In this document: positions 17,502-64,000 of the stretch, in pieces
Position numbering within the stretch: the first letter of the stretch is position 1
How the letters are laid out: each line of letters starts with the position of its first letter
Assembly (NCBI GenBank): GCA_963969395.1
Contig: OZ017798.1
Span: 19,832,173-19,896,172 of the forward strand
DNA length: 64,000 nt
Source: Pseudoscleropodium purum
Taxonomy: Eukaryota; Streptophyta; Bryopsida; Hypnales; Brachytheciaceae
Direction of reading: 5' to 3'
Made by a program: the position numbers and the translations under genes
Notes under the pieces: generated by a model
What the model was told of the DNA's origin: nothing
What the model saw: only the letters and a program-made list of their open reading frames with translations
The model's database searches: none

Positions 17502-17578
<77 letters not shown>

Positions 17579-20226: not shown

Positions 20227-20230
20227 TTAA

Positions 20231-24027: not shown

Positions 24028-24462
24028 TGGTAGACGAATTGGCCACTATTGGTTGGTTGGTCTAGTTTCTAGTTTGGCCCTTGGATTGGTACTTTTGGCT
24101 TCTAAATTGGTTCTTAAACCTTAGCAGTTATTGCTAATTTTTTTATTCTTAAATCCCTTATTTTTGAATTTAAACCAAACAATTGAGTTTTTTTTGGGGT
24201 ACCTTCAACAAAACAAACCTTAGAAATTTAAATTAGGAGCAAAGCTTCTCTAGTCAAGGGATTAACCCCAATAATTTAGAACTAAGAATTAGTCCTAAGT
24301 CGATAGCTTTGCCATATGGTTTTTTAGACCTCAACCTTAAACAATAAGGGAAATAACAATTAACGTAAAACTTTGTCTAGCTTGGGAGTGATAGCTTCAC
24401 CATAAAGTGGTCTAGTACCACTTTTCAAGACAAAAACATGAAGGGGTTAGTTAGAACTTTAA

Positions 24463-25085
24463 CCCCTAAATGTTTAGGACTAGGTTTTCAATAAAACTGT
24501 TCTAAATCTATTATTTTTAGAGCAAGTACCAAATTTTAGAAAAAATACATTTTTAGACACATATAGTTATAGGATCTTGTAGTAATCTGGTTTGAAAAGA
24601 TGTAGAATTTTTCTAGAATTTCCCCCTTTATAGATAACAACGGTTGTAATAAATAATTACAATTGTTGGGATTGCAAAAAAACTTCAACCCCTTAGTAGT
24701 AATAAATAATCTACATCATCTTTTTTTGTTTTTTTCAAAATACTAAAAATTGAATTAAATAAAGAACTCCTAAGTTTATTTTAGAGTAGAGAATCCATAA
24801 CTGCCTTCAAACTAGAGCACCCTATAATTTTCATCTCATAAATCAAAATAAAATGATTCAAAGCTTTTCACGTATATATAAATCTAAAAAACTAATTTCA
24901 AATTTTTATTTTTGAAAAAAGTGATTTTTTAGGAAATTTTTGGGCTACCCACCAAGCATTGAAAATGACATATTATACAATATCTTTTTAACTGTGAAGT
25001 GAAAAATTATAAAAACTTTTGGCCTTAAAGCTACTCTTTGGACACATGTTGTGTGAAAATTTCAAGGAAAAATAAATAAAAGGGG
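24463..25085 (-). mobile_element. TTAA-type element, inverted truncated copy 4
   Basis: TTAA is followed by CCCCTAAATG at 24463. The rest aligns, in reverse, with the right and middle parts of the 923-927-bp elements. Similarity stops near 25085, before the other terminus, so this copy is truncated. Confidence 0.55.
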
Positions 25086-26098: not shown

Positions 26099-29000
26099 GT
26101 TCACACAACCAAAGCCTAGTTAGTGACCAAAAACTAACTTTATTTGTGTTTTTGCAAATTGTTGGATTTTGCATTATAGTCTAGATTTCGGTTGACTTAG
26201 TTGAAGGCTTAGGATTTACACACTAAATAGTCTTCATAATTGCATTTGCATCCACTTATTAATAGAATGGTGTAGAAAAGCTTGATGCCCAAATTGAAAT
26301 ATTCAAGCTAGAGGGTTAAGTTTGTTTTAGGAGGCTATTGAATGGGGTTATTTCCTATTTAGCTCTCACTAGGACATTGCACCAAAAAAAATTAGAAAGT
26401 ATATTTTCTTTTAACTACATACAATTATAAACCTCACATGTAAATTCTAATTTCTAAATTTTATTACTCCACTCTTAAAGGCCACAAAGGTGAAAGAATC
26501 TCTCAAATTAGTTCTTATTAAATTTAATCTTTAATAATTTGAAACCTCATATTTTTTTCTAATTCTAATTTGGGTTTGATTCAAGGATAGTTTGATATTG
26601 TAATGCAATACACTACATTTTTTGAGCACAGTGTCTTTGTGACAAACTATCACAATGAGCTCAAAAACAACAACTGAATTGACTTTATTTCATCCCCCCA
26701 TCCTCCAACTCAATCTAAATTGATTTGAATCAAATTAATTATAATATCCCCTCCCCCCTTTCCCATTTGTAATTTTCAAGTGGCCTTTGTGTGCCATTCA
26801 ATATGGGATATATCAAGTATATTTTAGGTGTGTAGCCATAGCTATATTTTAGTACATATACGTATCCAAATATCATATTTGATTACATATCCATATGTTA
26901 GTGATGTATTTGTATCTCAGGATTTTTGAAGATCTATGGCATCAAAGTGGGTAGAAATTTTTTTAATTACAAATCAACAACTCTCATTTTTTTTAGGAGA
27001 GGTGTGTGTTAATTAATTGCAAATTTGTGTTTCGTCTCTTTTTGCCTCATTGTCATTGTCAACTAAAGCTTTTGGACTTTCAATTAAGACCAAGTCACTT
27101 TTTAGCATCAATCTTGTCTTTTACTTTGGGAACCATTGAATCTTTATTTATGAATTTAAATTTCCTATCTTGCATTTCACAAATTGGTTTCATATAGTTG
27201 CTATATTTGCAAAATTTACATTCCTTTCTCACCAACTTGGAAATGACTTTCTTCACCCCAACATTCTTTATTATTTATATACCAAACTTTTTAATTCAAA
27301 CTTTTCTTTAGCATTTTTCATACACTCAAAAACCCTTACTTAACTGGTAGACAACATTTTTTCCTCACAACACCAACTTGAATTCAAAGAAAAGAGAAGA
27401 TTCAGGCTTTATAAATTCCAAATTGGACTTCATTCACATTCAGAATGTTTGATACATCTCAGATCAACCAGAACACTCCTACATCACATACTCAAATTAC
27501 ACTCACAGACTTGACAAATCCATTTGATTATAATTAAATTTCAATTTGATTCATACACCAATGAATGCAGATCAACATATTACTCTAAGGTGTACATACT
27601 TTGCTTCACTCCTGAATTTTCAGGCTTAAAACTAAACTCAAAAAATTCTCACTACTCATATTAACGATTAACAACAATTTCTTTTATTACGGTGTGTAGC
27701 AAGCCTCTAACATTCATACATGCACATTCACACATAATTTACAACTCCCTCATCTCTTTGCACCTTCATCAATCTTTGTCTTTGTGTAAAAGACTCACAT
27801 TCATAAGCAATAAATTCCAATTAGATTCATTGTTACGCACTTGTAAATTGAACCTGACTCACTTGACTCACAATCACATCACACTCAAAGGAACCAATTT
27901 GGTATATAATTTTCAATTAGATTAATCTAAATGGGTAAGTAATCACCATTATACACTTAAAGTTTTGCTTAATAGTTGATATATTTCATCACAATTCCTT
28001 TACCACTTACATCGTCATAGTTTCCCATCATCATTAAACATATTTTTCATTAGAACTCAACCTCTTCTCCACTCATTCAAACTTTCACTTAGGGGATTGT
28101 TGGTATGTGAGTAGTGAGTGCTAAGCAAGGAGTGGTGAGGAAGGATTGGTGAGTGGGAACTTGCAATATTGACATTTTTTTAAAGTAAAAAAAGGTTGAA
28201 AAAGTAGATGGTTTCAGGAGACAATGGATGAAAGCTCATTAAATTATTTTTTAAAGATGTTGGAAAGTTGGAAAAATGGATGAAAGTAGATGGATGGAAT
28301 GGATGAAAGTAGTTGGATCACTTAGATGAAATGGATGAAAAAAATGAATGAAATCAAAAGATGAAAAAGTTAGATGGAACACTTGGATAAAATCTAATTA
28401 CAATGTATGACAAAAATGAATGAAAAAGGTTAGAAAAAATGGGTGAAGGATTAGGAAAGTAAGGAAGAATATATAATTGGGTATGAGGCAAAATGGCAGG
28501 AGCAAGAAAAGCAAGTGAGGAATAAGGATTTTATTAAAAAATATTCAAAATCCTATTATTGTGAAGATAAGTACCTAAAACCATGGATTCAATTTGTTTT
28601 AAATAATTTAGATTGATTTTATAAATCTAAGCTTAACTTGAAGTCGTGGAATCTTGGGAGCTCAAACCTATAGCCATGCTTGGATGTAAGCATTATGATC
28701 CTTTAATTTTTAGATATTTGAAGTCTTGTACAATTATATGAGAGCCCAAAGCAAAGATGAGAGAACAAAGAATTGGGTATTGAAGTTTCATTTATGAAAT
28801 ATAAAAGACCCTATTATTGTGTATTTTACGTTAGAATTTAATTATTGGAGTAAAAAAGCATGTAAAATGGTGAGTTTAAAAATAATGAGGTTAATATATA
28901 AAATGATGGTTTATTATTTTAGTGAAAGTGGGAGGAAATCTATGACCATCAAACCGGACTTAAGATGATAAGATTAATCAGCTTAAAATAAAATAAATGA

Positions 29001-29880
29001 AAAACTATAATTGTACAATACCACCCAAAAAATGACACCTATAGCAATGGCATGATACTGAAACTTTTAAGATTATAGGCATTTGTGAAACATTTACAAA
29101 CAAATCTAGTCTTAAAAATAGGCATAGAGAACCAATATTTATGTAGAAAAGAAGATGGAATAGTTTAATTTGTTTGATCAGCTTGCATATATCATTTAAA
29201 ATTGAGAGCATCTATAATTTAATGTTAGGATATTATAACGAAAATAAAGAATATATTACAAAACTATAGGGCAATTTAGAGCCACAATAGTCAACTCCAT
29301 TGAAAAATGAAAACCATTCAAAGACCATCACTAGAATTGCAATTACTTGAGGCAACACCTTTAATCTCCCATTCTTCTCTTTGCTCTGCTTCTATATCCA
29401 AAAACTCTTTGATCTTTAGATTATATCGACGTTTCCATTGATTCAATACACGAGAGGGGGCTTCAACATATACTTGAGCAATCTTTTCTATATAAATTGG
29501 GAGATTGAAATTGAAAGGCGGACTCTGTTAATTTGTATCTTGCACTTGTTCTACTACATTGCTTCTACAAGACAAAAAAGAAAGGTTGCAATAAGTAAAA
29601 TACAATGCAAAAATCATTTAAGAAGAATGTAATATATTCATATAATAGGTGTTTATGAAAAAACAAGTAAACTACAATTTACGCACAAGAGATGAATTGA
29701 TTCTTTTTTGGTTTCTTTGTAGGTGGTTGATTAGGTGGTGGTGTAGTGACCCTCCCCTTGCCTTTAGAAGTACACATTGCAATAGGGACAAATGGAGAAA
29801 TTTTGGCTTTGAAGATGAGAGATTCATCTTCTATTGTAAGGCCAAGATGTGTCGCCTTGTAGATTGGAGTTTTATGAATT
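26099..29880. other. Gene-free stretch
   Basis: The word ACTCTTAAAGGCCACAAAGG at about 26470 recurs in variant form at 30040 and 30445. From about 26990 the plus strand becomes rich in C and A and poor in G for long runs, while 28080-29000 is the opposite. No gene or transposon boundary could be supported. Confidence 0.35.
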
Positions 29881-29889
29881 ACCCATAGG

Positions 29890-30490
29890 CAATCTACCCC
29901 TAGTATAGAAAGTTCATTTGTAGGAGAATTTAAAATAGGAATCTAGATAAGTAGATTTCTTTAATCCTACTAGTAAACACAACCAATTGATTTTGTATTA
30001 TAATCCTTCCAACTAGGCCTAATTGCAAACTACTCTCCCTTCTTAAAGGCCATAAAGGTGAGAATCAATATCTTCCAATCTCGGCTCTTTTTCTTTATTT
30101 TTAACTTGGTACTCTTTTACCAATTGGTCCAAATACTTAAGACAGCTTTGCTTTATCGATTCAACATCTAACTTGGTCTCTTATCTTCACAATCATATTC
30201 CTAATTGATACTTCTTATAGCGTAGATCAGCATGTGTAGAAGGATGTTAGAACCAAATTCGGATTTACCCAACTAGTATAGTTCGTTCCGGAGGGGACTA
30301 TTTAAATAGGATTGTTTCTAACTGAATCTAAATTAATTCCTAATGAGTCATTGCAACATGGTATTTTGAAGAAAATAAAGTTCCTTAAATCAACTATAAC
30401 TATGTTTTCCTCACATGATAGCTAATTACACAATTTGTCACTCCACTCTTAATGGCCACAAAGGTAAGAAATGCTCCCAATTTGTATCTT
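29890..30490. repeat. Diverged ~400-bp tandem direct repeat
   Basis: The segment from AGTATAGAAAGTTCATTTG near 29900 to GGCCATAAAGGTGAG near 30065 recurs from AGTATAGTTCGTTCC near 30275 to GGCCACAAAGGTAAG near 30470. Both copies end in a splice-donor-like AAAGGTRAG. They could be duplicated exon ends or remnants of LTRs. Confidence 0.4.
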
Positions 30491-32250
30491 TAATTATCTT
30501 ATTTATTACGCTTGAATTCCTTTATCTTTATCTTCCAGCAACTTGGGTCTTTATCTTTCCAACTGGGATCTCCATCAGCCATTGGGCCGCCTGCTTCCGA
30601 CTTGGATTACTGGATTGCCACAGCACTGCCGCAGGGCAGTCTGGACTCCTACTCCCTATTCGGTATTCGGCCTACTCACAGACATACCAAATCGGCAATC
30701 GATTTCAGCCAGACTCTCTACAATGCTCCAAATTGGTTTCAACCATACACTCTCAATTGTTCAATAATACGCATATCAATACACAATAAAAATTACTCAA
30801 TAAATTCACAACTGGGTTGCTCCAGTTTACTACAACGACACTTCACACATACAGAAAGACAATTTGGAAAGCAATTCCGTTATATTCATCATGCCAAATT
30901 GACAACCAAGATCACCATTACAATTTGCCATTATACTTGTTCATACTCACAAAACCATCTCATAATTACTCACAATATAATTCTAATCTCTCCTACTGGC
31001 AATCGGACAAATAACTCCAATTAGGCTCGTAACATCTCAATCTTATATTGCAATCCAGCTCAAATCTAATTTCCACACTTCTGCACTAAACTGCCTGATT
31101 GAACATTACAATCACTATTCTCCCAAATTGATCTCATCTTTTCTACACACTACAATCCAAGCTCAAATCTAATTCAGATTTTTCTGCACCAACTTGGAAT
31201 CTCCTGCATTCACTACATCTCACTTCCTTGAAGCACACACTAACATAAATCCTCCATAACGTACGCACCAAATCATCACCCGATTTGGTAAATCTTCAAC
31301 ATTCATCTTTTCCCTTCCACATCTGCATCAACATTCACTGCCCAACAACACTCCGACTTGGACACAATCTCAAACACTCTGACTCGACACCAGACCACGT
31401 ACTCACAATTCCCAATTCGGAATTCACACACACACACAAGAACATGAACAGAAAACACAAAGAAAACGGAAATACACAGCCTGCACCAACTGGGACTCGC
31501 ACTGGACTCTCTCAAACAGTGGGTAAAAAGAAATGACAGCAAAAACAACCCAAATAGGCACTAGAGACGACGACTCGCAACTGCCCAACCAACTCGGCAG
31601 CTTCAATTGGAACAACTGACATTCCTACTTGGACCCCACACACCTCCTGACTTGCCAACTCAGACTCGGCAAACAACATCCTAATAGGCAAGCAGACCAT
31701 CAACCAATTTGGAACCTTCTGACTTGGACTCCAAACCACCCTAATTGACCCATTCAACTCCGAATTGGACACCATTCAATGCTCTAAAACAATCAAAATA
31801 GCACTCTCAATTAACCAATTGTTTGCAACAAATTGCAAATTACACTCCGATTAGTACAAAATAAAACAAAAATTTACTTCCTATCAGACTATCTACAGCA
31901 TGGCAGTCTACCAACTCGGAATTGACTCTCTTCTATTTATAGGCACTCACATTTTCATTATTACTCACTTGCTTTCCACTTGACAAATTGCTCCTTATTA
32001 TCTTTATTTCTTTTAGCCTCCCATTTGGTCCTCACGTCAACTCAAATTACTCTCAATTCACACCAGTATTTAACACAACTATTGACTAGATAATATCATG
32101 CACAAATCAAGTCTTTTGATTTGGTTTACAATTTAAAGATTTGTTAAACTTCCATTTGAATCCATACTCCAAATTTAACATATAAACATCATACAACCAG
32201 GACATTCACATAACCATTTAAACATACACAACTCGGATTTGGCAAATTCA
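30490..32250. other. C-rich, G-poor plus strand, no gene seen
   Basis: Long runs rich in CAC, ACTC and AATTGG/ACTCGG words give a strong strand asymmetry. Overlapping frames on both strands (30415-31024 plus, 31285-31775 both) are compositional and carry no motif. The origin is unknown. Confidence 0.4.
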
Positions 32251-32254
32251 CTAC

Positions 32255-32415
32255 CACTACTAGAAACTTTAGTTTCTCTATTGTTTCAGTTGCGTTGATT
32301 TGATTGTTTTTCTATTGATTTTCAATAGAAATTAATAGAATTTTGTCAAAATCAACAGAAAAATGACTACATCAACGTAATTAAAACAATAGAAAAACTA
32401 AAGTTTCTAGTAGTG
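32255..32415. mobile_element. CACTA-type MITE, 161 bp
   Basis: The perfect inverted ends are CACTACTAGAAACTTTAGTT and its complement, and the element is flanked on both sides by TAC (32252-32254 and 32416-32418). The whole element is close to palindromic. It belongs to the same family as 1021-1175. No coding capacity. Confidence 0.88.
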
Positions 32416-32419
32416 TACC

Positions 32420-33087
32420 AATCTGTTATTCAACATTATATCGATTACAACGATACATCGAATTGAACATACAGGATGACACTATAACAATTCCCATTAG
32501 ACACACATCCAACTTCACCTAATACACTTATACATGTAAATCAATTCACAAGCATTCATAATGGAGCCATACACTTGTACAATCATAGATTTACACTTAA
32601 ACTTCAATTTCTCACACAATTCAATCTAGTTTATTACTCATCACAACAACTACACATCCAATAATAACAACTGCACATACACAACCAGATACATCACATA
32701 CTCCAATACAAACACACCATACTACACTCCAATTAAGCAAACGACCACTTAATATATTAATTGCAACGAAAACACAAGAATGAAAATAAGTAACTCTGAC
32801 TGAACTCGCACTAGACACGCTTGACAATGGGTAAGTTGCTCCATGCTCTACAACACCAAATAGGCAACCCCGAAGATGACCAACTGCCATCAAATTGGAT
32901 CACCTAAATTCAAATCCGAATAGGCACATACTAGTCCCTACTGAGCTTTTTTACTACTTGATGTTAACCCAACTGGTAAGATAAACCGATTAGAAAATAA
33001 CTAGCACTAACATATTGAAATGCACTTTCAACAACTAAAATTAGCTCACTACAACCCATAGCACCAAACAAAAATGAAAATTCTTAC
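32420..33087. other. Gene-free stretch, may hold lost 3' exons
   Basis: C-rich plus-strand sequence continues here. It lies just downstream of the last recognisable exon of the minus-strand ParB-methylase pseudogene and should contain its end, but no further exon could be read. Confidence 0.3.
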
Positions 33088-34036
33088 CAACTAGGTATAG
33101 ACTCCTATCTACACGCCTATCCTAGTCTCCAAACAAGCTTTGATGAATGATCCTGATGGAAAATAAAAGATATATGAATGAAATTTCAAAGAGTCAATTA
33201 AATGCAATAATGAAAACAATTTGAAATTGTAGAAAATAAAAAAAATACTTGTTGTAGCTTTGCAATCAAGGACAATATCTCTAGGCTTGCAAAATTGTTG
33301 AATGAGATCTTGTATGAAGGGTAAGTTTTTCTCGCACGGTCCTCTCTATGGAACTTCTTCATTCATAGAAAGGTTTTTGGTGTCTCTCAAATTGAAAACA
33401 ACATCATTTTTCTCTATTGATTCACCATTATAAAAAGAGCCACGGTTCTCTTGGAATGAAAATCGCAAAGGAATGTCTCAATGAATGAACAATTGAATCC
33501 AGAACCTAACAGATTAGAGCATTCAAAAGTTAAATATTAGAAGAGAAATTGTATTCATTATGCCCATTTCTACAATTCAAGCATGTATTAAAATTCAATT
33601 CAACCATTCTTCTTAATCCTTACAAGTAGTAGTGAAGATGTAAATTGCAAATTTTCTATATATCATCATTGATGGGTTGCAAATAGATGCAAGATGCTAT
33701 TCATTGATTTCCCACCAATCTTTAGTCAACTTCATATCATATTAGTCGGCCAACTCATTAACTTCTTTTAGCAAACTATGGTTGTCACAATGTATGAGTA
33801 GTAAGGCACCATCGTTGTGCAAATACATGTTAGCCATCTCTCAACATAGTTTTTTGAGCATAAATTCTAGTCTAGAATTGAAGTCAAAATACTTGGAACG
33901 GGGAGATTCTCAGGAATGTCTGCAATAATCAAATCAATCCTTGTATGCTTGTACTTTTTACAAAGTCGAAGGTGATAGTACGATTGCGAGTAGCACTAAT
34001 TTGTACATTTCATACATCTCAAGTTAGAATTAGAAT
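33088..34036 (-). other. N4/N6 DNA methylase domain exons
   Basis: Three exons (34036-33624, 33505-33249, 33152-33088) carry the domain. The motif order, catalytic IV then SAM-binding I, is that of the permuted beta-type methylases of the N6_N4_Mtase family. Motif IV is degraded to ADIPEN from the family's DPPY-like form. Motif I is split by an intron exactly after ATT and reads ATTRSFIKAC, a plausible decay of the glycine-rich loop. The donor at 33624 is GTAAGG and the acceptor before 33152 is CATCAG. Base specificity (N4-cytosine or N6-adenine) cannot be told. Confidence 0.7.
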
Positions 34037-36186
34037 CTTCAAAAACAATGGTATAAAAAAATACTAGATTTAAGTTTAGAATACAATACCTTAGCAATGG
34101 TATTATGCAACTTTATCCATTGAAGATCAGGGCCAGTGGGCTCTTCTAAACTATTCAAGAGAGTAGTAATAGAAATGCATTCTACAAAGACATGAAAAAA
34201 ATGTGGTTTTATCCTAAAAGAGCTTATTGAAGGGAACAATACTTTTTTCTTCTTCCAAATTCAATAAGTAGTGGCGTGAACAACATTTGATAAAGAGGAA
34301 TCTAGAGTAGCACATGCAAAGCCATCATTAGGGCCTTGGTTTGACATAGGTGTTGTTTCAAGACTCTTTGAGAGCAAAGCCACAAGCTCATTCTCTACCT
34401 CCTCTTTATCCACCTTCTCTTTTGCCACCTTTTTTTGTCTATACCTTCTCTTTTGCCGCCATTCTATCTCCATTTTCTCCTTTGTGAGCTTCTTCTTCTT
34501 TGGTGTCTTCTTGTGTGGTTGAATTTCTTTAGAATTATCTTCTTGCACATCCTCAAGGTCAATAGGAATAAGCTTACCACCATGAAAAGTTCTTTTCTCT
34601 ACCACCTCTGAGTCTGAAATGTAGTTTTGATGACAATTAAGGTACCACCCTCTTGCTTCAAAGTGTGGAGGTTTGAATTTCTTCAATTGCTCAAAAGTGT
34701 ATATATAGAGATCAAAGTCTTTCTCCAACCAATATACAAAAAATGGTGATTAAGCCTTTGTTGAGATTGCATTCTTTTGAAGTAGAGCTCGTATGAAGTA
34801 CTTGAAGTTGAAGATACAAGTGGCATGATGAGCAATCAATTCATGAAATATCTTGCAAAAATAACAAATGAAACATTTTCATCTATTAAATAGGCAAAAA
34901 AGGATCCAAAATTAAAAGACAATAAAAACCTAAACAATTGTAAATGCCATCAATTTGAATAGTATTATAGTACTTGTATACAATACATTTCATTGTACTT
35001 TTAGTTCTAAGGAACTCTTTAAATAAAGACTTCTTCATGTAGAATTTTTTTTTTAATTTCCAAAGAAAGAAGTGAATGCTTTATCCCATAGAAGGATGCA
35101 CCAACTTTCAACATAATCAAAGGGCTTTTGAATTCCTTAAATGGTCCAATCTACAATGATTTTTTCATCTTTGCAAGTGTTTGTAACCATTTTCACAATT
35201 ACCTCCTCCAATTGTTAAAATAAAATAGAGAATGTTAAGAAAGTAAAGTGTAAGACTATAATAATTGTCATTGAAGAGTTCATTTGTAATGTGAGAACAA
35301 TATCGTAGCCCCAAAAGATGCTTTGTTGATTCAAGAATCCCAAAAGACTTCCTTACCTTTAAACCTTGGAAAACAATAAGATTGTCGAATTGTCAACAAC
35401 ATATTCCACCATCTTAACCACTATGCCTTGTGTTTTGATTCAATGTTAGCAGTGTCTATCTTTTGTATTTTTTTTATTGTCATTTTAAGAGTTGAATTTT
35501 CACTAAAGTGACGATTAATCTAAACATGTGATAACATTTATTGTAGAGCAAAACAAATATAATGAAATATTTTGAGATTGCAATTATAAATGGAATAAAA
35601 ATGAATTTATACCTCTTTCAAAAAATCATTTTCATTATTTGAATTTGCCACCACAAAATACTTAACAAAGTCTTTGGTATAAATAGCCTTCATAAACTTG
35701 TCTAAGGCATTTTTCATTGCTTTCCAAATGCCTAGAGTAGTTCTTTCTTGGAGTGTTGTTTGCATTGTACATTTTTGAGCTGCTTCATTGGTGGCCATTG
35801 CAATCTCCTGCTACGATTGGAAATAGAATGTCAAGAGGATTATATAAATTATACAAACTATATGAAAAAAATAATTAAAAAGACAATTGTACCTTATATA
35901 AGATGGAGATGAAGACATTGACTATCAAGGAAAACTAACTTGGTCTCATTGCCTTGACCTTCTTACAATATTGGTACTCTTAAGGGGAAATAAGGTCTAT
36001 GAAATCAACGAGGGGTAGAACTCCAAAATTCTTAACTTGGCACAATCTAGTTGGAATTGTGCTTTTAACATGATTGTATTCAGTAGACTTATACAATGCA
36101 TTTAAATGGGAATAAAAACAAATTCAATTGCAAGACATTCATAATGAAATCATACAAATTTAATTTAAATCAAGTAGGAAATATAC

Positions 36187-36779
36187 CAATTAATGTCGCT
36201 CATGGCATTTAGTAAGTTTGCCACTTGACCTCTTGAATCTAATATAATGCAATGTACTTACCAATGCCAATGCAATTTTTCAAGATGACAATTGGTAATA
36301 TGGTGCATCCATGCCATCAAATAGTGATTCCCGTCCCAAACATAAAACATCTTAATTCTCAATTGGACAAGGTTATCATTTGCCATCAACTCCTTCTTAA
36401 ATTCCTCATTAATAAGTTGCCAAAGAAGATCCTACTTTGCAATTTTTTCTTTGCTCATTTTTACAGTTTTTTAAAAATTGTTGTATAAAAAAATGTGCAA
36501 AACATGATCACTTTTATGATAATCAACTATGAATTTACTCTCCAATCTTTGGATGCTCACTTCATCAATTGGTCAAATCTCATTCATTACAATCATTTTG
36601 TAAAGAAGAATTTGGAGGCAGAACTTCGTACTTGGCTGTATATGTAGTGAGTTGATGAGACCTATGAAGTTCATTTTCAGTTGTCAATAGTGGAGTTGCT
36701 CACTTTCTACTACGCTCGTTATATGAAGTGGACACTCGCATATGTATTCATCATCTTCTTCAAGATCAATTGAAACAAC
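36187..36779 (-). other. ParB/Srx-like domain exon
   Basis: This exon is one long frame with five stops. Its first part has a PIDEVSIQRLES segment, like the start of ParB nuclease folds, after MIVMNEI. The core LRIKMFYVWDGNHYLMAW follows, then HCIILDSRGQVANLLNAM. In ParB/sulfiredoxin folds the DGNHR loop contacts nucleotide; here R to Y requires both changes expected from decay of a CpG. The acceptor is at 36780 and the donor after 36187. Confidence 0.6.
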
Positions 36780-37702
36780 CTTCAAATGCATAATTTACAA
36801 ATATGAATATGACATAATGAAAGATATGACTCCAAGATGTAAACTAGAAGTAAATTCATATCAAATGCTATAAACTTGGTATTTACAATATCTCAAAGTA
36901 GATTGAAATGTGCAATTTGTGTCAAGTGATATGAAGTACGACCATAAAACTTCAATGCTATTTGCATCACTACTCGTGCCCGCAAATGGATAGGGATAAC
37001 CGACAAAACCTTAACAACATCTTTAGCATGTGTAGAAGCTACAAATGGTTTTGACGTAAATATGGACATTGGAGACGTACAAATGTAATCTATGGATGAA
37101 GGCTAAGGTTATGTTGGCACATATACTAGTGAGGTCACCATATGTGAAGGCTTAAGCCATGACATTAGAGTATGAGGTAGAGAGGACTTAGCCTCCTCGA
37201 ATGCTAAAGACGTATTTCTTACAACATTAGACTAGCAATGGTAGTACATTATCTCATTGCTTTTGATATTGTTGAGGTCAATCACCTCATAAGTTGCATT
37301 TGTAAGCACGATCTGTAAAACCTAAATTGAAAATGGACATTTACAAAAATTAAAGTAAATATTAAAAATAATGGTAGATGATATTGAATGGAAATAGATA
37401 ATATTGAATTGAAGTAGATGAATTGAAATATGCTTACAATTAGCATATATCTGGATTGGTAGTGGTGGCAAATCTCTTGTAAGTACAATTAGAGATGTTG
37501 TAATTGTGCATGTTTCTCCTTTAATAGTTTTGTTGACATTGTCTTCATTCTCGCCCTCTTCTTTAGTAACATTGTTAATGTTGATAGTCTTATCTTTGTC
37601 TTTAGTATATGAAGCAATAATAATAATTTCCTTATCTCTTCATCTTTTTCATTCACTTCATTAATATATACATTCGAAAATAAAATGTGAGTGATGATCC
37701 TT

Positions 37703-38362
37703 ATCAACGAGTAACTCTAAAAAATTTAGTACGCTAGTGGACTAAGAATTCTAAACCGTAAGATTCTAAAAAAAGCATCTTTGTCAACAAGTAACCCTAA
37801 AAAATTCATCACATTAGTGACCCTAAATCCTAAACCATAAAACCCTAAATACTAAATCTTTATTGACAAGGGATTCTAAAAAATTCAATACATTAGAAGA
37901 CTGAAAACCCTAAACTGTAAGACCCTAAACTTTAAATCCTTATTAGTGAGGGACCTTCAAAAAAATCAGCACACGAATGAATCTAAAACCCCAAACTGCA
38001 AGATCTTAAAGAAAATATCCTCATTAATGAGGGACCTTCAAAAATTTAGCACACTAATGAACTGAAAATACTAAGCTGTTTAGCTGCAAGACTCTAAAAA
38101 AGCATCTTTGTCAACGAAAGATCTTAAAAAATTCAACACACTACTGGACTGAAAATACTAAATTGCAAGATGTTAAAAAAGCATTCTTGTCAACGAGGGA
38201 CTCCGAAAAATTTAGCACACTAGTGGACTGAAAATACTAAACCGCCAAACATTAAAAAAGCGTCTTTATCAATGAGGGACTTTGAAAAATTTAGCACACT
38301 AGTGGATTGAAAATACTAAATTACAAAACGTTGAGAAAGCATCTTCGTCAATGAGGGGCCCT
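37703..38362. repeat. 79-80-bp tandem array, ~8 copies
   Basis: The anchor TCAACGAGGGA or a variant recurs at 37704, 37784, 37864, 37944, 38024, 38111, 38190, 38269 and 38348, giving periods of 79-80 with one of 87. Units share TTTAGCACACTAGTGGACTGA and CTAAAAAAGCATCTTTG. The array fills the first intron of the ParB-methylase pseudogene. Some units contain CCCTAAA-like words. Confidence 0.9.
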
Positions 38363-38518
38363 AAAACAACAACAATGTAAAAAACAACAAGTTTTGGACC
38401 ACTTTTTTGAAATCCTAAACCAAAAAAGAATGAACATGTATATAGCAGTTTTTATCTCAATGTCTAGTTGGATATTTGCCTCTCTTCCATCCATTGTATA
38501 TTTCTCCTCATCTTCCAT

Positions 38519-39019: not shown

Positions 39020-39027
39020 ACCTCTAT

Positions 39028-39287
39028 CAGGGGTGACAAATCAGTACGTCCGCCCCAAAATAGCGTCCGTAATCCGGACGTCCGTCTTCACGGACGCCAG
39101 TGGACGCAGCGTCCCTCCCGCAGTCGGAAGGCGGACGGGCGGGGCGGGGCGGGGTGGACGGGCAGACAGGCGGACGGGGCGGTCCCAACGGACACTGCAT
39201 CCGTCGGGACCGCAAATGTCAGTGGACGCTGCGGACACAACGTCCGTGTCCGGACGTCCCGGACGTCTGACCGTCCTGTCAACCCTA
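39028..39287. mobile_element. GC-rich hAT-type MITE, 260 bp
   Basis: The ends CAGGGGTGACA and (inverted) TAGGGTTGACA match, and the element is flanked by a perfect 8-bp duplication ACCTCTAT at 39020-39027 and 39288-39295, as hAT transposition produces. The interior is very GC-rich, with many GGACGTCCG/GTCCGT words, and stands out sharply from the AT-rich surroundings. A G-run cluster at 39137-39154 could form a quadruplex. Overlapping frames on both strands (38856-39308 plus, 39027-39282 minus) are compositional. Confidence 0.88.
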
Positions 39288-39295
39288 ACCTCTAT

Positions 39296-41050
39296 GATAA
39301 AAATCTAATGGAAATTCAAAACACTATCTTCTAAATTGGATAGCTTTCTTCTTACACTTACAACCTTCTACTTACATCGATATGCACTAAGATTGTAAAT
39401 AATTACATACCAATTATATTTCTACTTTCTTGACTTTCTCAAAATGCTTATTAAAAACATTCATTGCAAATGACTTAATATTATGATATACCTACTAAAT
39501 CTTTTCTACCTTCATTATCATTCTTGTTTTCATTCTCTTCTATGTCATTTTTATTGCTTTTTTCTCTTGCTATCATAGGCACTAGTTCTTCAATAATTTA
39601 ATCTAAGCTCAAAAAACCATCGCCAATAATATTGTTCACCTCTTGGCCTCCAAAATCAAGTGCCTTAGACACTTCACTATAGCCTTCTTTTCTTCGAGTC
39701 AAAACTTTGGTGGCCCCTTTTATCTTAGATTTCAACCTTTCAATTTGAATGGTGTAATACAATTTTTTTTTTCTTTGTTTGTCTACTTGCAACCTAAAAC
39801 TTCAAAATGCATTCAAGCATTTAAGCATTTAAGCATTTAAATTACTACACATACATCTCTAAACAATGAACATCTCAATATTTTTCTATTGCCTATGTAC
39901 TATTCATTGTTTACCCTTTCTATCTTTTGATAATGTTCCTATAGACATTAATTCTATCGAAAAGAAAATACACTTAATTATTCAAAATCTTCAATAACAA
40001 CACATGTCATATGTAATAATCTCTTACAATTTCCCTTTAAATAATAGAAAACAACTATCCAATGCACTAACGTAGAACAAACACTAAGTGCCAAGAAAAT
40101 ATAGAAAGTGAGAATATAAGGTCCTTCAATTCTGATGAAGGTAGTAAATAAAAGGTAATTTAGGATAAGTGTTTCAAATCTCTAAGAAGTAAGAATTACA
40201 CAGTTCTCAAGCAAATCAAAATTATAAAATCTAATAAATCTATTGCTATAAATAATACTTTTGGCATAAATACACTACCACCATTTTCTTAAAACGTATA
40301 CAAAAAAGTTGATTAGGCATTCTTTTTATTAGTATCACCAAATATCAAAATAAATGGGAAGTATTCAAAATGTTAAGTAATACTTTAGATTTTTCTTTAA
40401 CATATTCTGATTCAATATTATATTTAAGGTTTCAAACTAAAGCACATAAGCATTTATTTAAATGTTTATCACTATTAATAAAAAATCTTAATATGTATAG
40501 TACTTTGGATCTTTACTTCTGCTTCCTGTTCTTAATAGTAATTTTTAAATTAATTCATAATAAATATACCTATTTATGTTGTTGCATTGTAAATGCTTTT
40601 ACTATGTAAAAATATATAATTATATTTCAAATCGGAGGGTTATTTTAAAGTATCAAAAGGTAGTTGAAATGACATTTTTTTTTATATTTTATTTTCTTAC
40701 CTTTGTTAGATATTCATTTGATTATAGTTTTTTTTATTTTCATATCAAAAGATATTTTGAAACTTACTTCATATATTAAAAGTTATTAAAATAAAAGGTG
40801 AAGTTTGTTTTACTTTTTTTAAATTTTAATTGATTTTAATTTCACTTAGAGATGCGAATAGAGTTATGGAGAAGAAAAGAATTAGCCAATGGATGAAATG
40901 TGGTCTATGTAGCTTGTTTGGAAAAATCCACTTGCTTAAGTAAAGGAGATGGAAGATGAGGTGAAAAATGAGGTGGAAGAGTCTTCTTCTTCCTCTTCAC
41001 AATTTGCTTAGAAGAGCCATGAGTTTGAAAAAACATAACATGTTGAATTT
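39296..41050. other. AT-rich gene-free stretch
   Basis: Several short frames lie on both strands (for example 39598-39792 minus and 40370-40779 plus). None has a recognisable motif or consistent splice borders. Confidence 0.4.
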
Positions 41051-41059
41051 TGTAAATGT

Positions 41060-41900
41060 TGTAATGAAGTTTTGAAAAAATGTTCTTTTTCTTCTTGTAA
41101 TTCCAAAACCCTATCACTTTCTTTATTTGGAGTTTCTATATGAAAATTATGCTTGAGGGAGTGAGAAAGATTTATTTACTATAAAGTTTGAGTGCAGAAT
41201 TTTTGAGAGCAAAATCTTTAAGAGCCTATAATTTATGAAAAATATTTTTGTTGTAGTTCAGTTTTATAAATATTGTAAATGCTTGTGTTAAATTTCCAAA
41301 AAACTATTACAAACTTGATTTGAGTTTGTAGAATGAAAGTTATGTACTTAGAAGCAAAGTAGTGATGAATTGCCTTTGAATTGAAAAGAGAATTTTGACC
41401 ACTTATAAAATATAAATTTTTTTTTTTATTTTAGTTGAATTTTAGAAGATTGATAGATACTTGTATTAGATTTTCAAAAAGTTATTATATACTTCATTTG
41501 GAGTTGTATAGTAGAAGATTTGGTGTTAAAAATATGAAGGTGTAGAGTTGCTGCCAAAATTGAAAGTATCATTTTCAACATAGTATAAAACATAGGCAGT
41601 ACTTTATTTTGAGTTGAAATTTGTAAAGATTATATATATTGGTATTAGCTTTTTAGAAAGCTATTACACTTTCAATTTAGAGTTATATAATGAGAAATAT
41701 ATATTTGGAAGTGAAGTAGTATTAAACTACCTTTAATTTGAGAAGAAGAAACTTTAGATGGATATAAAATATGTATAATATCTTTTTTTGACTTGAATTT
41801 TTGAGAAGTTGTAGATATGAGTGTTTATCTTTTAAAAAGATATCACATTCTTCATTTGGAATTTTGAAGCAATCATGGCATTCATTTGAGTTCTATGTAC
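41060..41900. repeat. Diverged ~178-bp tandem array, ~5 copies
   Basis: The anchor CTTCATTTGGAG or a variant recurs at 41121, 41314, 41492, 41670 and 41850, with spacings of 193, 178, 178 and 180. Each unit also has a block like TTTAGTTGAATTTTAGAAG and TTGTATTAGATTTTCAAAAA. The unit length is satellite-like, but the copies are strongly diverged. Confidence 0.7.
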
Positions 41901-42088
41901 TTCATTGAAGCATTTTACAAGTTTTATTTTCAATTCATTTAACTTTTTTATAAGTTTTGGTAGTATATTTTGAATTATACTATTTTCTATGGAGCATATA
42001 TAATATATATTCAATTGAAAGCATTATATGAGCATGATATAAGTATTTATACAACTTGGAGAATTCTATAAATATTTAAACGGCTTCA

Positions 42089-42093
<5 letters not shown>

Positions 42094-42142
<49 letters not shown>
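42094..42142. repeat. (AT)n microsatellite
   Basis: About 24 uninterrupted AT dinucleotides. Confidence 0.95.
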
Positions 42143-43740
42143 TAATACACATTAGGAAAAAATTAAGGCCATGGGAAGGTTGAAAGTTTGGAAAGGAGAA
42201 TGATTTTGAGTGCTAGCCTGTTGATTGCTTATGTACGGTGTCTAATGTCCAAATTGGCACTACTAATGCCAATACAACTTTGAAAAATATGAAGATGATT
42301 TGCTAGAAATTCAAAAAAATTGTTCAAAATCCACTAGGCAAATTACCAATTTATTATTTGAACATTTATATTCAAGTCAATTTTCAAAGGCAAAATGAAG
42401 AAATTTATTCATTGATGTATAATGAGATTAAAGTTTGGAGAGGTCATTTTTAGAATGAAAACTATTGTCCATTTTGAATCTTCGAAAGGTATGAGATAAA
42501 TTAAAGATGAGAGTTTGATTGCTTATTGTCAAAACATAAGTGAAACTCTTACTAATCCTACATATTCCACATAGATTGTTTTTCTTCCCACTACCTCACT
42601 TGTATAAGTATCTTTCTTCAACTCATTTTCAAAGTGACTCTTTTTCAATTAGATGGATCCTAAAACAATTTATAATTTTCACTTAAATGTCAAATTTCTA
42701 AAAATTAAATAATGAAGTGTCGAACTTTATTTTTTAACTTTAATTAATTATTCAGTATCAAAATGCCGAACCTACTATCTAAATACAGTAGTCATCAAAA
42801 TAGAAAAATAACTAAGTTTGCGATTTCATTTGGACAATTCATTAGTGAGCCTGATTGTGCACTACTTGCCCATCAAACTAAGTTGGTATAGAGGAAAGTA
42901 TACTTCTAAAAAACACTAACAATGGTGAACAAATCTTCTTAACAACCTTCTACAAGGCTAAATTTTTTTGTAATGCATATTGTTTACATGTATTGTACTT
43001 GTATGGAGATGTCGTATTTCAAATATATTGGTTGAATTTCATTTCTATTTAGTTATGGTATCTTTCATATTCTAGACCAATTCTAGTTGTAGCTAGAAAC
43101 TCTACGTTTTTCCAAGCCAAATTCTCTCTCCAAGACAACGTAATCAATTATTAAACATTTAACTACTTTATTAAAAAAAATTCTAATTTTCTCAAATATG
43201 ATTGTATACTTCTCTATTCACTTTGTAACTATCATGTGTTTGTAATTTACTTAAGTATTTATTCTGGTAAGGTTTCCTTGGACCAATTCAAATTCACCTT
43301 ACTTCCTAAATTCTTATCAAGGTCCCTCATTGTTATACTTTTCTTATCATTTTCTATCCATACATATTATAAAAAACTAGATCATCATCCATTTGTTTTA
43401 CTATATGTTTGTTTCTAATAAAGAACCCTTTCTTTCAATTCATTTTTTTAAAGTGCGATTTTTTTTTAAAACAATATTTATTCATTGTATTATTGTTCAA
43501 GAACATCTTTCAAGTTTGAAAAATATGATTACTTATTTTAACTATACTGTTGCATAAAAGAAGTCAAAGATAATTGCATTGTATAGTACATGATGTTTTA
43601 TATTATTTGTCTTCATTGCCTTATATATACGATGTCAATATAGTTTCTTCCAATATGCTTCCAAAATAAATTTATGTAGATTCCACCTCAAAGTAATATC
43701 CAACCATTTAAAGTCTAAATGTTTTTCTACCACATTTGGG
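42143..43740. other. Gene-free stretch
   Basis: No frame, splice pattern or transposon boundary could be supported in this AT-rich stretch. Confidence 0.4.
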
Positions 43741-43746
43741 TGCCAT

Positions 43747-44588
43747 TTGATAGAGCAATTTATAGATTTGGTGGTTATAAGAGAAAATGGTAAGGAATTA
43801 CCTGTAATTTTTCCAATAGAAATAGATGAGAGTACTTTTGTATTAGTACTGAAGTTAAGTCTTAGGTTTAAACTTAAGTTTTATTCTTTTTATCTAGATG
43901 AAAACATTATTGATCCTAATTTTAGAAACCTTACTTACATTGTTGGACAACTACCATTTTTAGTTATAGAAAATACAATGTAGATCCTCAAGGTTGGAAG
44001 ATATAGGGCTTACAAAGTTGCTAGTAAAGTTGAATCCAACTCTAAAAGTGTAAGAACCATTCCTTTATCCTCTTTTGCTTTCTTTCAAACTCAATTTTTG
44101 AATAGTGCACTACAAAGGAATGCTGCCAATTTTTTTGTCATTTTGAATATGTTTTTTGTCAATTTTTTGTCAAGTGACAGAAAATTGACAGAAAACATGT
44201 CCAAAATGACAAAAAATTGGCAACATTCCTTTGTAGTGGTGTCAAAATTGAACCTTGATTGTACTCTATCACCATCCTTAATTTAGATTCAAAAGCAAAC
44301 TTTTCTAAACCAAGCTTGAATTTAAAGACTCCTTCCATTGCAATTTTATCTACCAATCCTTCATTTATATCAATAGTGACCCTTAATCCAAGTGTCTTTA
44401 TTAGATTAGGAGCATCTATAATTGATTGCTTGAGAGGATTGCATAATTTGAAAGGATGTAAGATTGTCTTATCCAAACTAAACTATAGTAGTATACAAAT
44501 TCAAAAAGTGACAATATCACCTCCATCTTTCAATGACAATGTTATATTTGAATTGTTTGCAATTGATACAAGTGACACCCTATTTTAA
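43747..44588 (+). pseudogene. Unrecognised decayed coding sequence split by a MITE
   Basis: A plus-strand frame with IRENGKELPVIFPIEIDEST and a following LKLSLRFKLKFYSFYLDE stretch runs from 43747 to a stop at 43981. It continues past that stop in the same frame (ILKVGRYRAYKVASKVES) up to a CACTA MITE at 44108. Beyond the MITE a further open frame (to 44588) encodes LNLDSKANFSKPSLNLKTPS and a Ser/Ile/Leu-rich tail. Codon use and continuity look protein-like, and the MITE appears to split one reading unit. No family is recognised. A minus-strand frame at 44159-44476 overlaps and is less convincing. Confidence 0.35.
44108..44238. mobile_element. CACTA-type MITE, 131 bp
   Basis: The ends CACTACAAAGGAATG and CATTCCTTTGTAGTG are perfectly inverted, and GTG flanks both sides (44105-44107 and 44239-44241). 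The element is nearly a full palindrome, with TTTTTTGTCATTTTG arms. The sequence differs from the CACTACTAGAAA family elsewhere in the window, so it is a second CACTA family. Confidence 0.9.
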
Positions 44589-45400
44589 GCAAAACAAATG
44601 GTTGACATGGATAAATGGTACATTGGCTGACATAGGTAAATGGTACGATGGCCATGTTTGATCAAAGACAATAACTACAAATGTAATTAATCAAATGGGT
44701 TTATCTTTCCGAAAATCTAATTGCTTGGGGACATTTCATTAATCCTTAAAAGACAAAGAGATTTGCTATGAACTAAATGTATTAAAAAAAAAAATTCTAC
44801 ATCTCCTTTTACGAAATTATAGGCAATATAGAAGTTATTATAAAAAGCCTCTAATTTGATTTTTATAATTAAATACCATATAAATATTTTTATTTCTTTA
44901 CAAATCAAATTCAAATATTTTAAAACAACTATTCAAATAATTGACAAAATAGAAATCATATTAATTTAATTTTGTTTTATATATATACAATTAATTATAA
45001 TAATCTTCAAAAAATACTAAATACTAAATAATCAAACCAAATTTTTTTTGTTCTTTAATTCAAAAAGATTTCATACTATAATCATAAATATAATAACAAT
45101 TAAATAAAATCTATAAATTAAAATAAAATTTGAAAATATTGTGATGTATTCATCTTATTGAAAAATTAAAATTCATTGGATTTGAAATGTTGGAAGAAAT
45201 GTGCACTATAATTTTGAACATTCAATCTAATACTTCGTAGTATATATTGGCTTAGAATTTCAAAACCAATTTCAATCCAATCATTAAATATGAACATTCA
45301 CTAATTGAATTTATTAAATAAATTCTAAAATAATAAACAATATTTGAAAAGATAATTTTTCATTCAATCAAAACAAAAATCATAAAACAATTTAGAAATC
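44589..45400. other. AT-rich gene-free stretch
   Basis: Downstream (minus strand) of the dioxygenase-like pseudogene. No polyadenylation signal was distinguished from the general AT background. Confidence 0.35.
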
Positions 45401-45403
45401 ACT

Positions 45404-46939
45404 TTAAAACAACTTTCCTTCTACCAATTTCTTGTGGTAGATACTCTTTCTAATTTCAAAGTCAGCCTTCCTTTCAACAATGGTCTTTGTTGGAACTTTA
45501 TCCTTCTTTAGAACATAGTCTTCAATTATTCCATCCATAGGAAGATTTAATAACCTTCTCATTTGCCTAAATAGAGAAGCTTTTTGGAAAAAAACTAATC
45601 CTAGTTGAGATTTCTTCTTGAAAACTCTTGTACAATGATACATAGAACCTGCCCTAAAGCATAAAACATTCCCATGTTTGGGAATAAAGAAGACTCTAAA
45701 TTCAGGCATTGTAAAAATTGAAACTTCTTCACCAACTTCTACATCACCTATTATAAAAACAAATCAATCTTAGTAAAATTTTATATAAATAATGATATAA
45801 TATTAAAAAATTAAAGTAAAAAATCAAAATACTTACCTTTTTATAATTATAGAAAAAATCCATGATTATAATCATCCCGGTCGACATGTGGGCAATAATT
45901 GTAATTCTTTATTAGAGCAAAAGATGTAAATGGCATATTTCTAATGTATAGATTCACATCGCCAAAACCTTTAACCGTTAATATTTTCTTCAAATGAAGA
46001 AAAACCACAAGGTACTTTAACTGATTAACTCAAGACGATCAGAGATAAATGTAGCCAATTCTTCTGAAAGTTTATAAACATTTGTATTTTTGTGTACATA
46101 CCTATAAAATAAATATATACTAATATTAAAAATATTGACCAAAAATACAAAATTAATTCAAAAAGACATAACAAACATTGAAAAGATTATATTATAAAAT
46201 ACATTGAAAAAATACATTAAACTATTTACCAATCAATGTCACCCATTGTGCAACACATTCCAAATGCTTTCATGTTAGAACTTTGAATCTTCTTCGAACT
46301 ATCCACCAGATATCCTTTCATCTTTAAATATGATGATGCTCTTGTGATTAAAGCCAAATCAACTTTAGAAAAGATATCATTCTTTAAACTCTCAATAAAA
46401 GAATTTGAAGGTGAGTCTTCATGAAGAATGAAAGGATGCTCTAACCTTGTAAAATTCGATAATAGTATGTTTAATCCAACATTTGTATGTTTGAAATCCT
46501 TTTGCCATAACTTATATATGAAGAATTTTGTTACCAAAGCAAGATCTTGGAAATTTTCTTCACTTCTTTTTATAACAATTTGTTTCAACTTCCCATGTTT
46601 CTCAACATGTTTAAGTAATGTCTTCAACTTCACCTCCAACTCTTCTTCACATTTTTCACAATAAAACTTTTTCTTTCTAAAAACCCAATCTATGCCATAC
46701 TTGACAAACATAAGTAGTAAATTATAAATAGTCTCATTGCTAATATGTCGACTAAATGAATAGTGGTCTTCAAGACTCTTCCTATTGATGGAAACTTCAA
46801 CATTACAATAAATGCAAAGATCAAAACCATTTGAAGTTGAATCCTTCCCCAACTTCAATTGCCATATAAAACGACCTTGGAATATTTCAGCATCCCCTTC
46901 TTCAATGATTTATGATTGATCTCTTCTTCTTTGAGCCAT
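45404..46939 (-). pseudogene. C2H2 zinc fingers + 2OG-Fe(II) dioxygenase-like pseudogene
   Basis: Three minus-strand exons (46939-46230, 46101-45837, 45747-45404) have GT/AG borders and matching phases. Exon 1 begins MAQRRRDQS, has a stop at codon 10, then FDLCIYCNVEVSINRKS followed by a histidine pair and FYCEKCEEELEVKLKT followed by HVEKH, which look like two C2H2 fingers. Exon 2 has one frameshift and then NYNYCPHVDRDDYNHGFF, giving the H-x-D iron-binding pair. Exon 3 has GEEVSIFTMPEFRVFFIPKH and NVLCFRAGSMYHCT, with the distal iron-binding histidine and downstream basic residues that could bind 2-oxoglutarate. Two stops lie just before the exon 2 donor. The order fits the 2OG-Fe(II) dioxygenase fold. 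TET/JBP-type DNA hydroxylases are one candidate subfamily, but I cannot separate them from other branches. Confidence 0.6.
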
Positions 46940-51993: not shown

Positions 51994-52157
51994 TCCCACT
52001 CCAATCTACCTCACTCTCTCCTAGCCGCACGTCCCATTCCTCACGTTCTCTCTCCGATCTCAACCGGAATCAAAGTCTGCAGCACACAAACGCAAAAACT
52101 CTACAACGCGCGCTCAAGGTCGAGTTTGTAAGAGGGGGTGCAACTGCGAAGGCTCCT

Positions 52158-63470: not shown

Positions 63471-64000
63471 CAAGTTAAGTTTAGACAATTTAGACAATTT
63501 CTACTTAACTACTATAATATGTACACTTTTCAAGTTCTATCCTATTTATATGCAGAATTTGGGTTTAGTTTGAAGAAAAAACTCTATTTAGGACCAAATG
63601 TTTTATAAACTACCTATTTTGGTTTTATACTCTCTTTTGGATTTTTTTTTATTAAAAACTTCACTCAAAATAACAAAAGCAAAAGCAAAAAAGAAATAGT
63701 GAGCTCGAAACAAAAAAATGGGAACTCACAACTTTCAAGATGCTTGAGTGATGTTCAATCATATTAAACATGTTAAGGTTAGAATTATTGTAGCATGCCA
63801 TTTCTATGACTCTCTTTATTGTCACATGATGGTCATTGTTATTGCAATCTAAAGATTGTGTTGTGCAAATTGCATTTTAACTTGAACTTAATCCTTGCAA
63901 GACATGGTGTATTCCACCCTGAATTCAAGGGATTCATAATTAATTGTGCCCAAGCAAATTAGAATGTTGTAAAGATGATCAATAAGTTGGGTGACATTGC
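63471..64000. other. Gene-free stretch to window end
   Basis: Nothing recognisable. Confidence 0.4.

What the first reader, a model, noticed from the sequence alone, without database searches (positions are those of the whole stretch)
33088..38518. Intron-rich ParB-like + N4/N6 DNA-methylase gene, decayed, in a plant genome
Seen directly: about eleven exons with GT/AG borders on the minus strand, an N-terminal ParB/sulfiredoxin-like core (VWDGNHYLMAW) and a C-terminal permuted DNA methylase (IIADIPEN ... DIVLDCKATT joined to RSFIKACLET). Known: ParB-methylase fusions occur in bacteria and phages, and N4/N6 methylases of bacterial type are rare in eukaryotes, with captured N4-cytosine methylases reported in bdelloid rotifers and bryophytes. 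Inference: an ancient capture gained introns and became a plant gene or repeat-borne family, of which this is a dead copy.
Basis: partly seen in the sequence, partly recalled or inferred. Interest (0 to 1): 0.92.

Follow-up and report, generated by a model that had tools for sequence, protein, structure and literature searches.

The report
Methylase-related cargo gene of a transposon
This is a decayed copy of a gene related to bacterial DNA methylases; relatives of it elsewhere in the same genome sit inside a mobile DNA element with many nearly identical copies, and the protein likely helps such elements deal with the methylation or silencing of their own DNA, a kind of tool known from only a few mobile elements.

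Summary
The minus strand of 33.1-37.6 kb carries an intron-rich, broken gene; its C-terminal half is a permuted N6_N4-type DNA methylase (family profile against PDB adenine methyltransferase 1.3e-5; Pfam 2.6e-5 on a relative, just under the curated cut-off). The ParB label is not supported: a DGNHR-type motif is there, but no ParB profile matches significantly. The 313-Mb genome could be searched: the gene has at least 38 exon matches, and 11 copies are 97-99% identical over 7-8 kb on seven contigs. One was delimited as a 16,363-bp element; three have 9-10-bp target-site duplications. A putative transposase gene lies head-to-head with it: 18 of 36 merged copies have a listed one within 40 kb, always upstream on the opposite strand. 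Transposase remains lie in the window too (44.3-44.7 and 63.7-64.0 kb). So this is transposon cargo, and the window copy is most likely a dead member of an older subfamily whose own ends were not read. The catalytic DPPY motif is replaced in all nine sequences where it could be read, while the SAM-site region persists. Likely role, untested: a methylase-derived accessory factor against silencing, by analogy with VANC of VANDAL transposons.

The parts
37438..37609 (-). putative N-terminal exon, donor GT at 37437
   Evidence: frame and donor; tblastn to L140, L141 and L143 at 50-60% identity; its 5' border is not set
36887..37321 (-). exon with in-frame stops
   Evidence: AG/GT borders; relatives in L140, L141 and L143
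   Evidence: AG/GT borders; the open exon of L151 matches 36677-36189 at E=9e-23
35893..36087 (-). exon
   Evidence: AG/GT borders; tblastn to relatives
35613..35807 (-). exon
   Evidence: AG/GT borders; tblastn to relatives
35270..35522 (-). probable further exon, by eye, borders uncertain
   Evidence: open frame after a TTTAG acceptor; not tested further
35056..35205 (-). exon, donor not set
34090..34851 (-). exon with the 162-codon open stretch 34261-34749, lysine-rich linker
   Evidence: 38 matches in the genome at E<=1e-3, its own place included
33624..33995 (-). methylase exon, motif IV region (IIADIPEN in place of DPPYN)
33249..33505 (-). methylase exon, target-recognition part, motif X and start of motif I
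   Evidence: best hit of methylase profiles in the window
33080..33152 (-). last methylase exon, SAM-site region; 3' end not set
   Evidence: phase-compatible GT-AG join; same intron position as in L151 within one alignment column
37689..38357 (.). 79-81-bp tandem array just upstream of the exons read; related arrays in L140 and L143
44295..44730 (+). remains of the putative transposase gene, N-terminal part
   Evidence: tblastn E=2.5e-7 and 4.4e-5
63730..63980 (+). remains of the putative transposase gene, core part
   Evidence: tblastn E=5.5e-11, 46-48% identity
28512..43279 (-). stretch matching copy L140 in pieces (28512-29856, 33126-38260, 39288-40580, 43138-43279); the gaps 29857-33125, 39027-39287 and 40581-43137 are extra relative to L140
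   Evidence: blastn

Best explanation
The window holds a decayed, intron-rich gene whose C-terminal half is related to permuted (N6_N4-type) DNA methylases; relatives of it lie inside mobile DNA elements with 9-10-bp target-site duplications, so this copy is likely a dead member of that transposon family, and the protein likely serves the element by acting on the methylation or silencing of the element's own DNA. Shown: the methylase relationship; a 16,363-bp element in the one copy delimited at both ends, target-site duplications in three, and 11 near-identical copies; the head-to-head pairing with a putative transposase gene; selection on the DGNHR exon between subfamilies; replacement of the catalytic motif IV in every sequence where it could be read. 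Inferred: the partner is the transposase and the element is Mutator-like; the DGNHR part and the linker give DNA or chromatin contact; the protein binds SAM but no longer methylates bases in the usual way; it acts on tandem arrays upstream of its own gene, much as VANC proteins of VANDAL transposons bind motif arrays and strip methylation. The window copy was later cut up by insertions.
For: Genome search: 38 matches, 20 of 38 without stops inside the match. Of 36 merged places 20 were fetched; 11 are near-identical and share a right border. Target-site duplications GTCAAATGA, CTGTAGAGAG and GCACTAGAAG in 3 of 3 copies with both ends read; terminal inverted repeats 16 of 21 alike. Pairing: 18 of 36 merged copies have a listed transposase exon within 40 kb, all upstream and opposite; 0 of 36 in each other layout; random placement mean 0.23, maximum 4 in 1000 draws. 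Same layout in the window. Methylase: PDB 5hfj/5hek E=1.3e-5 with motif IV and motif X-I regions colinear, the first of them weak (2.9 bits); Pfam N6_N4_Mtase E=2.6e-5 over positions 30-217 of 221 on joined L151 exons. Selection in the DGNHR exon: third codon positions differ most (0.60-0.72), second least (0.22-0.42), in 15 of 15 pairs of six copies. DPPY absent in 9 of 9 sequences readable there. Tandem arrays of unlike unit upstream of the gene in both subfamilies. VANC parallel: passages of PMC5735166.
Against: No expression, binding or methylation data. The transposase is not matched by Pfam MULE; the 22 PF10551 places in the genome are other places, and the SWIM match is weak (E=0.18). 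ParB profiles do not match. Among the 11 young copies pN/pS is 0.65 overall, 0.99 in one exon and 1.45 in the motif IV exon, so selection within the young family is weak or masked by decay; several of them carry stops (for example L144, L150 and L153 in methylase exons). Half of the merged copies (18 of 36), the window's included, have no listed transposase exon within 40 kb, though only 90 of 886 candidates were scored and listed. The ends of the window's own subfamily were not read. Pfam scores stay below the curated cut-off (24.7 against 26.7 bits).
Confidence: 0.6

Rival explanations
1. The cargo is a working N4- or N6-methylase that marks the element's DNA with a bacterial-type base, for protection or for recruiting host factors; the changed motif IV is a tolerated variant.
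For: The SAM-site region is kept across subfamilies; the nearest solved structures are adenine methylases; a working amino-methylase captured from bacteria exists in bdelloid rotifers (PMC8885841, abstract and passages).
Against: The DPPY motif of the active site is missing in 9 of 9 sequences readable there.
Confidence: 0.2
2. The gene is a passenger captured by the transposon, without a role in its life cycle.
For: Gene capture by plant transposons is described at length (review PMC13317346, passages); pN/pS within the young family is 0.65.
Against: The codon-position pattern shows protein-level selection between copies at 26-52% identity; the layout with the transposase is seen in the old subfamily too.
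Confidence: 0.15
3. An ordinary host gene family with dead copies, not transposon cargo.
For: Introns, and no Pfam MULE match in the partner gene.
Against: Target-site duplications, common borders, 97-99% identity on seven contigs and the fixed partner gene.
Confidence: 0.03
4. A viral (giant-virus) insertion or bacterial contamination.
For: Methylases of this class are frequent in bacteria and large viruses (recalled).
Against: GT-AG introns, one at a shared position; 36 merged places in the assembly, those fetched on contigs of 12.7-48.2 Mb; no relative found in two viral-contig scans.
Confidence: 0.02

Closest known systems
VANDAL transposons of Arabidopsis with the accessory gene VANC
   Same: DNA transposon with 9-bp duplications, transposase with a zinc knuckle, an intron-bearing accessory gene and tandem arrays near the genes (passages of PMC6446971 and PMC5735166)
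   Different: No DUF1985 or DUF287 was reported in the pieces scanned; the cargo here is methylase-related; anti-silencing is untested here
Retrotransposons of dinoflagellates and charophytes that carry C5 methyltransferases (PMC5890265, search listing with start of abstract only)
   Same: A mobile element carrying a DNA-methylase gene
   Different: Those are C5 cytosine methylases in retrotransposons; this is an amino-methylase relative in a DNA transposon
N4CMT of bdelloid rotifers (PMC8885841, abstract and passages)
   Same: Permuted N6_N4 methylase of bacterial type with introns in a eukaryote
   Different: N4CMT is a host gene with a chromodomain and 4mC activity; here no chromodomain was found in the pieces scanned, motif IV is replaced and the gene is mobile
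Adenine methylase of PDB 5hfj and 5hek (entry name DpnA; M1.HpyAVI is recalled)
   Same: Colinear motif IV and motif X-I regions
   Different: DPPY there, D-x-x-E-N and similar here
Phage methylases with an IADIPYN motif (Solobacterium phage SMO_1P and relatives)
   Same: The two best unspliced hits in the window lie in the right order
   Different: 255-aa phage protein; reached through a weak hit (E=2), so partly chosen for likeness

Membership tests
N6_N4_Mtase (PF01555) | profile match above the curated cut-off | tested here: inconclusive
   joined L151 exons 24.7 bits against 26.7, E=2.6e-5; window with exact joints 0.011; 4 of 8 members of A2 match at E<=1 (A2 has flawed rows); PDB methylases E=1.3e-5 with the clean alignment
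N6_N4_Mtase (PF01555) | permuted order: motif IV before motif X-I | tested here: met
N6_N4_Mtase (PF01555) | catalytic motif (D/N/S)PP(Y/F) (recalled) | tested here: not met
   DLQEN, DYQEN, DCPKN, NYLDG, NILEN (twice), DIPED, DILEN, DIPEN: 0 of 9 sequences has it; five of the nine are one subfamily; L154 and L158 could not be read there
N6_N4_Mtase (PF01555) | base methylation activity | not testable with these tools
   no wet assay
ParB/sulfiredoxin-like (PF02195) | profile match | tested here: not met
   no ParBc hit in window or relatives (best other hit KMP11, 1 of 9 at 0.0011); no ParB in two PDB profile searches (best BstEII 0.12); one PHROG ParB-like hit at E=0.1 in 1 of 9
ParB/sulfiredoxin-like (PF02195) | DGxHR-type core motif (recalled) | tested here: inconclusive
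   DGNHR in 3 of 9 rows of A1, variants in the other six, four of which are the broken old subfamily
ParB/sulfiredoxin-like (PF02195) | fold | tested here: inconclusive
   single-sequence model of the broken exon, mean pLDDT 44
Mutator-like transposons | 8-11-bp target-site duplication | tested here: met
   9, 10, 10 bp in 3 of 3; the range is from PMC6446971
Mutator-like transposons | transposase with MULE domain PF10551 | tested here: not met
Mutator-like transposons | SWIM-type zinc knuckle in the transposase | tested here: inconclusive
   CxC...CxH visible; Pfam SWIM E=0.18
VANDAL/VANC | sequence-specific loss of methylation on the element | not testable with these tools
   no methylation data

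The most novel reading that the evidence does not exclude
A DNA transposon lineage has turned a bacterial-type amino-methylase into its own epigenetic editor: a DNA-targeted, SAM-binding protein that recognises tandem arrays beside its gene and co-evolves with them, so that each subfamily controls only its own copies. It would be the methylase-based counterpart of VANC and a system in which bacterial-type DNA modification, or its reading, is fought over inside a eukaryotic genome.
Probability: 0.28. Interest if true: 0.9.

Novelty: new variant of a known kind. Interest (0 to 1): 0.72.

Why it matters
Accessory genes by which DNA transposons counter silencing are known in few cases (recalled, with VANC seen). 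A methylase-derived one, with recent near-identical copies, an older dead subfamily and tandem arrays beside the gene in the same genome, makes co-evolution of such a gene with its targets directly testable. It also warns that domain libraries miss this family: an exon-by-exon search of the genome with PF01555 found 0 places at E<=0.001, so kin elsewhere may be unannotated.

Tried and rejected
Homologue searches of the 5.8-billion-protein collection with the read-through (whole, methylase part, DGNHR part) gave nothing. Viral-contig scans with the window's own pieces: nothing. The pattern for VWDGNH[R/S][L/F] found 2 viral and 4 genomic loci; their reading frames show six unlike proteins, one phage ORF perhaps ParB-like by eye, so the motif alone was dropped as proof. 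Splice-gain test at the last intron: the true GT-AG join scores 18.5 bits, but the best join in 200 shuffles averages 16.8 and reaches 28.1, so it is no evidence for that intron; the intron rests on the shared position in L151. Phage ParB-like proteins fetched to build a ParB profile gave too few relatives. Copy count by DNA did not complete, nor a ParB family search of the genome. Literature: ten searches listed no paper on an amino-methylase gene in a plant DNA transposon; two lists were cut (12 of 20, 8 of 20), the library lacks most subscription papers, and one relevant review was not held.
Full report
What was checked. The minus strand of 33.1-37.6 kb was read in all frames. Coding-like stretches are split by T-rich gaps, most of them 85-120 nt, with GT/AG borders (exons 30% T, gaps 43% T). 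The frame is broken: 19 stops in a 1060-residue read-through and at least three frame changes.

Methylase part. Pfam and PHROG hits on the exactly joined window sequence are weak (N6_N4_Mtase 0.011; phrog_3008 1.6e-4). An unspliced test does better: a profile of phage methylases run over all six frames of the window puts the best hit at about 33.34-33.26 kb (10.1 bits, next place 1.9; best of 60 shuffled windows 8.1), and a profile of the family of one phage methylase puts the two best places of the window on the motif X-I exon (12.2 bits) and the motif IV exon (7.6 bits), in the right order (best of 60 shuffles 8.0, next 5.8). Both phage families were found with the window as query, so these tests are not fully independent. 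The test with the genome's other copies is clear: 71.5, 65.5 and 19.9 bits in order against 1.2 elsewhere and 10.2 in the best of 60 shuffles.

Relatives in the genome. After ten unanswered tries, the genome search showed the window to lie in a 313,191,705-base assembly of 52 contigs. The 162-codon exon has 38 matches at E<=1e-3, its own place included, 20 of 38 without stops inside. Of the 36 places left after merging I fetched 20. Four (L140-L143) are close kin of the window copy (about 80% DNA identity over the gene) and carry stops as well. Eleven (L144-L153, L156) are 97-99% identical to L151 or L144 over 6.9-8.1 kb, on seven contigs, and share a right border. Five more (L154, L155, L157-L159) are other types.

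The element. One young copy extended upstream gives a 16,363-bp unit from CAACGACGCTAGCG to CGCTAGCAACCCTG; the ends are inverted over 21 bp (16 of 21 alike), and duplications of 9, 10 and 10 bp flank the three copies whose two ends I read. Of five further left ends sought, two are in those three; for two copies (L145, L150) the stretch fetched showed no match and for one (L147) the match began inside. At the left, on the opposite strand, lies a gene with a CxC...CxH knuckle; Pfam gives SWIM at E=0.18 and no MULE domain, and the 22 places with a MULE domain are elsewhere. It is called a putative transposase here because it holds the other long open exon (473 aa) seen between the inverted ends and is itself repeated: 90 matches scored of 886 candidates. 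Of 36 merged cargo places 18 have such an exon within 40 kb, all upstream on the opposite strand; 0 of 36 in each of the other three layouts. Among the best 25 transposase places, nos. 11, 15 and 21-24 have no listed cargo within 100 kb, so the transposase may also travel without it.

The window copy as an element. The same layout is seen: transposase remains on the plus strand at 44295-44730 and 63730-63980, with the cargo gene on the minus strand below. Against copy L140 the window carries extra stretches at 29857-33125, 39027-39287 and 40581-43137. Its own ends lie outside what was compared, so duplications for this subfamily are not shown.

The protein. In the young copies the DGNHR exon and the methylase exons keep order, strand and spacing in 11 of 11; several carry stops, so how many are whole is not known. 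The family profile of the methylase part, clean alignment, finds adenine methylases in the PDB (5hfj, 5hek; E=1.3e-5), the motif X-I region strongly (23.1 bits) and the motif IV region weakly (2.9 bits) but in line. Motif IV reads DLQEN in 10 of 11 young copies (a stop at the fourth place in L153) and DYQEN, DCPKN, NYLDG, NILEN, DIPED, DILEN or DIPEN in the others; DPPY was seen in 0 of 9 sequences, the young family counted once; L154 and L158 could not be read there. The last intron sits at the same place within one column in the window and in L151, whose DGNHR exons are 30% identical; the intron before it does not line up (columns 118 and 135). Divergence in the DGNHR exon is greatest at third and least at second codon positions in 15 of 15 pairs of six copies, the mark of selection on protein sequence. 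Within the young family 83 synonymous and 203 other changes were counted on 629 and 2380 sites (pN/pS 0.65; 1.45 in the motif IV exon), so recent selection is weak or hidden by decay.

ParB. The DGNHR motif and its surroundings recall ParB/sulfiredoxin proteins, but 9 family members give no ParB hit in Pfam (the best hit of any kind is KMP11 at 0.0011 in one member), one hit at E=0.1 in PHROGs and none in the PDB with two profiles. The window exon alone gives DUF6551 at 0.059. I keep it as a DGNHR-motif part and do not file it under ParB.

How it may work. Tandem arrays lie upstream of the cargo exons in both the young family (177-217-bp units; two in L151, five in L152) and the old one (78-81-bp units), with unlike units. 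In VANDAL transposons the accessory protein VANC binds short motifs held in tandem arrays and strips methylation from its own family (passages of PMC5735166). The cargo here has the right company: a mobile element, an intron-bearing second gene under selection, a DNA-methylase ancestry and arrays that change with the subfamily. The step from likeness to function is inference.

Known or new. Mutator-type elements with extra genes (SET, OTU, ULP proteases, VANC) are described (passages of PMC6446971 and PMC13317346), and so are C5 methylases in retrotransposons (PMC5890265, listing and start of abstract) and a captured amino-methylase as a rotifer host gene (PMC8885841, passages). My ten searches listed none with an amino-methylase in a DNA transposon. 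I therefore rate it a new variant of a known kind.

Limits.

Noticed in passing
window 39027-39287: GC-rich small insertion with hAT-like ends (TAGGGTTGACA / TTGTCACCCCTG) and an 8-bp repeat ATAGAGGT on both sides (by eye); absent from copy L140, kin in L154 and L157.
   Followed up: partly
window 29857-33125: 3.3-kb stretch absent from L140-L143, with two overlapping open frames at 30400-31024; not identified.
   Followed up: no
window 49151-52426: Repeat 88-92% identical to stretches of L155 and L158, with a 557-aa open frame (50332-52005, minus) in a GC-rich stretch; gag-like by eye, no significant Pfam hit.
   Followed up: partly
window 13155-14095, 17224-18149, 19296-20230, 24451-25080: A dispersed repeat in both orientations, also in or next to copies L142, L145 and L150 (70-82%).
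   Followed up: no
window 46226-46909: 227-aa open frame on the minus strand with CxxC pairs and no Pfam family above its cut-off.
   Followed up: no
window 21133-21239: snR85-like H/ACA snoRNA match just over the gathering score (37.5 against 37, E=0.0018).
   Followed up: no
L144 8297-8887: A second, different transposase-like exon (55% identical) just outside the right end of a young copy.
   Followed up: no
own genome: The putative transposase family is large (886 first-look candidates) yet Pfam MULE does not see it; some of its copies have no listed methylase cargo nearby.
   Followed up: partly
own genome C45:10187944 and 10217454; C47:8858291, 8992424 and 9144741: Equal or nearly equal transposase scores at nearby places suggest local segmental duplications.
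   Followed up: no
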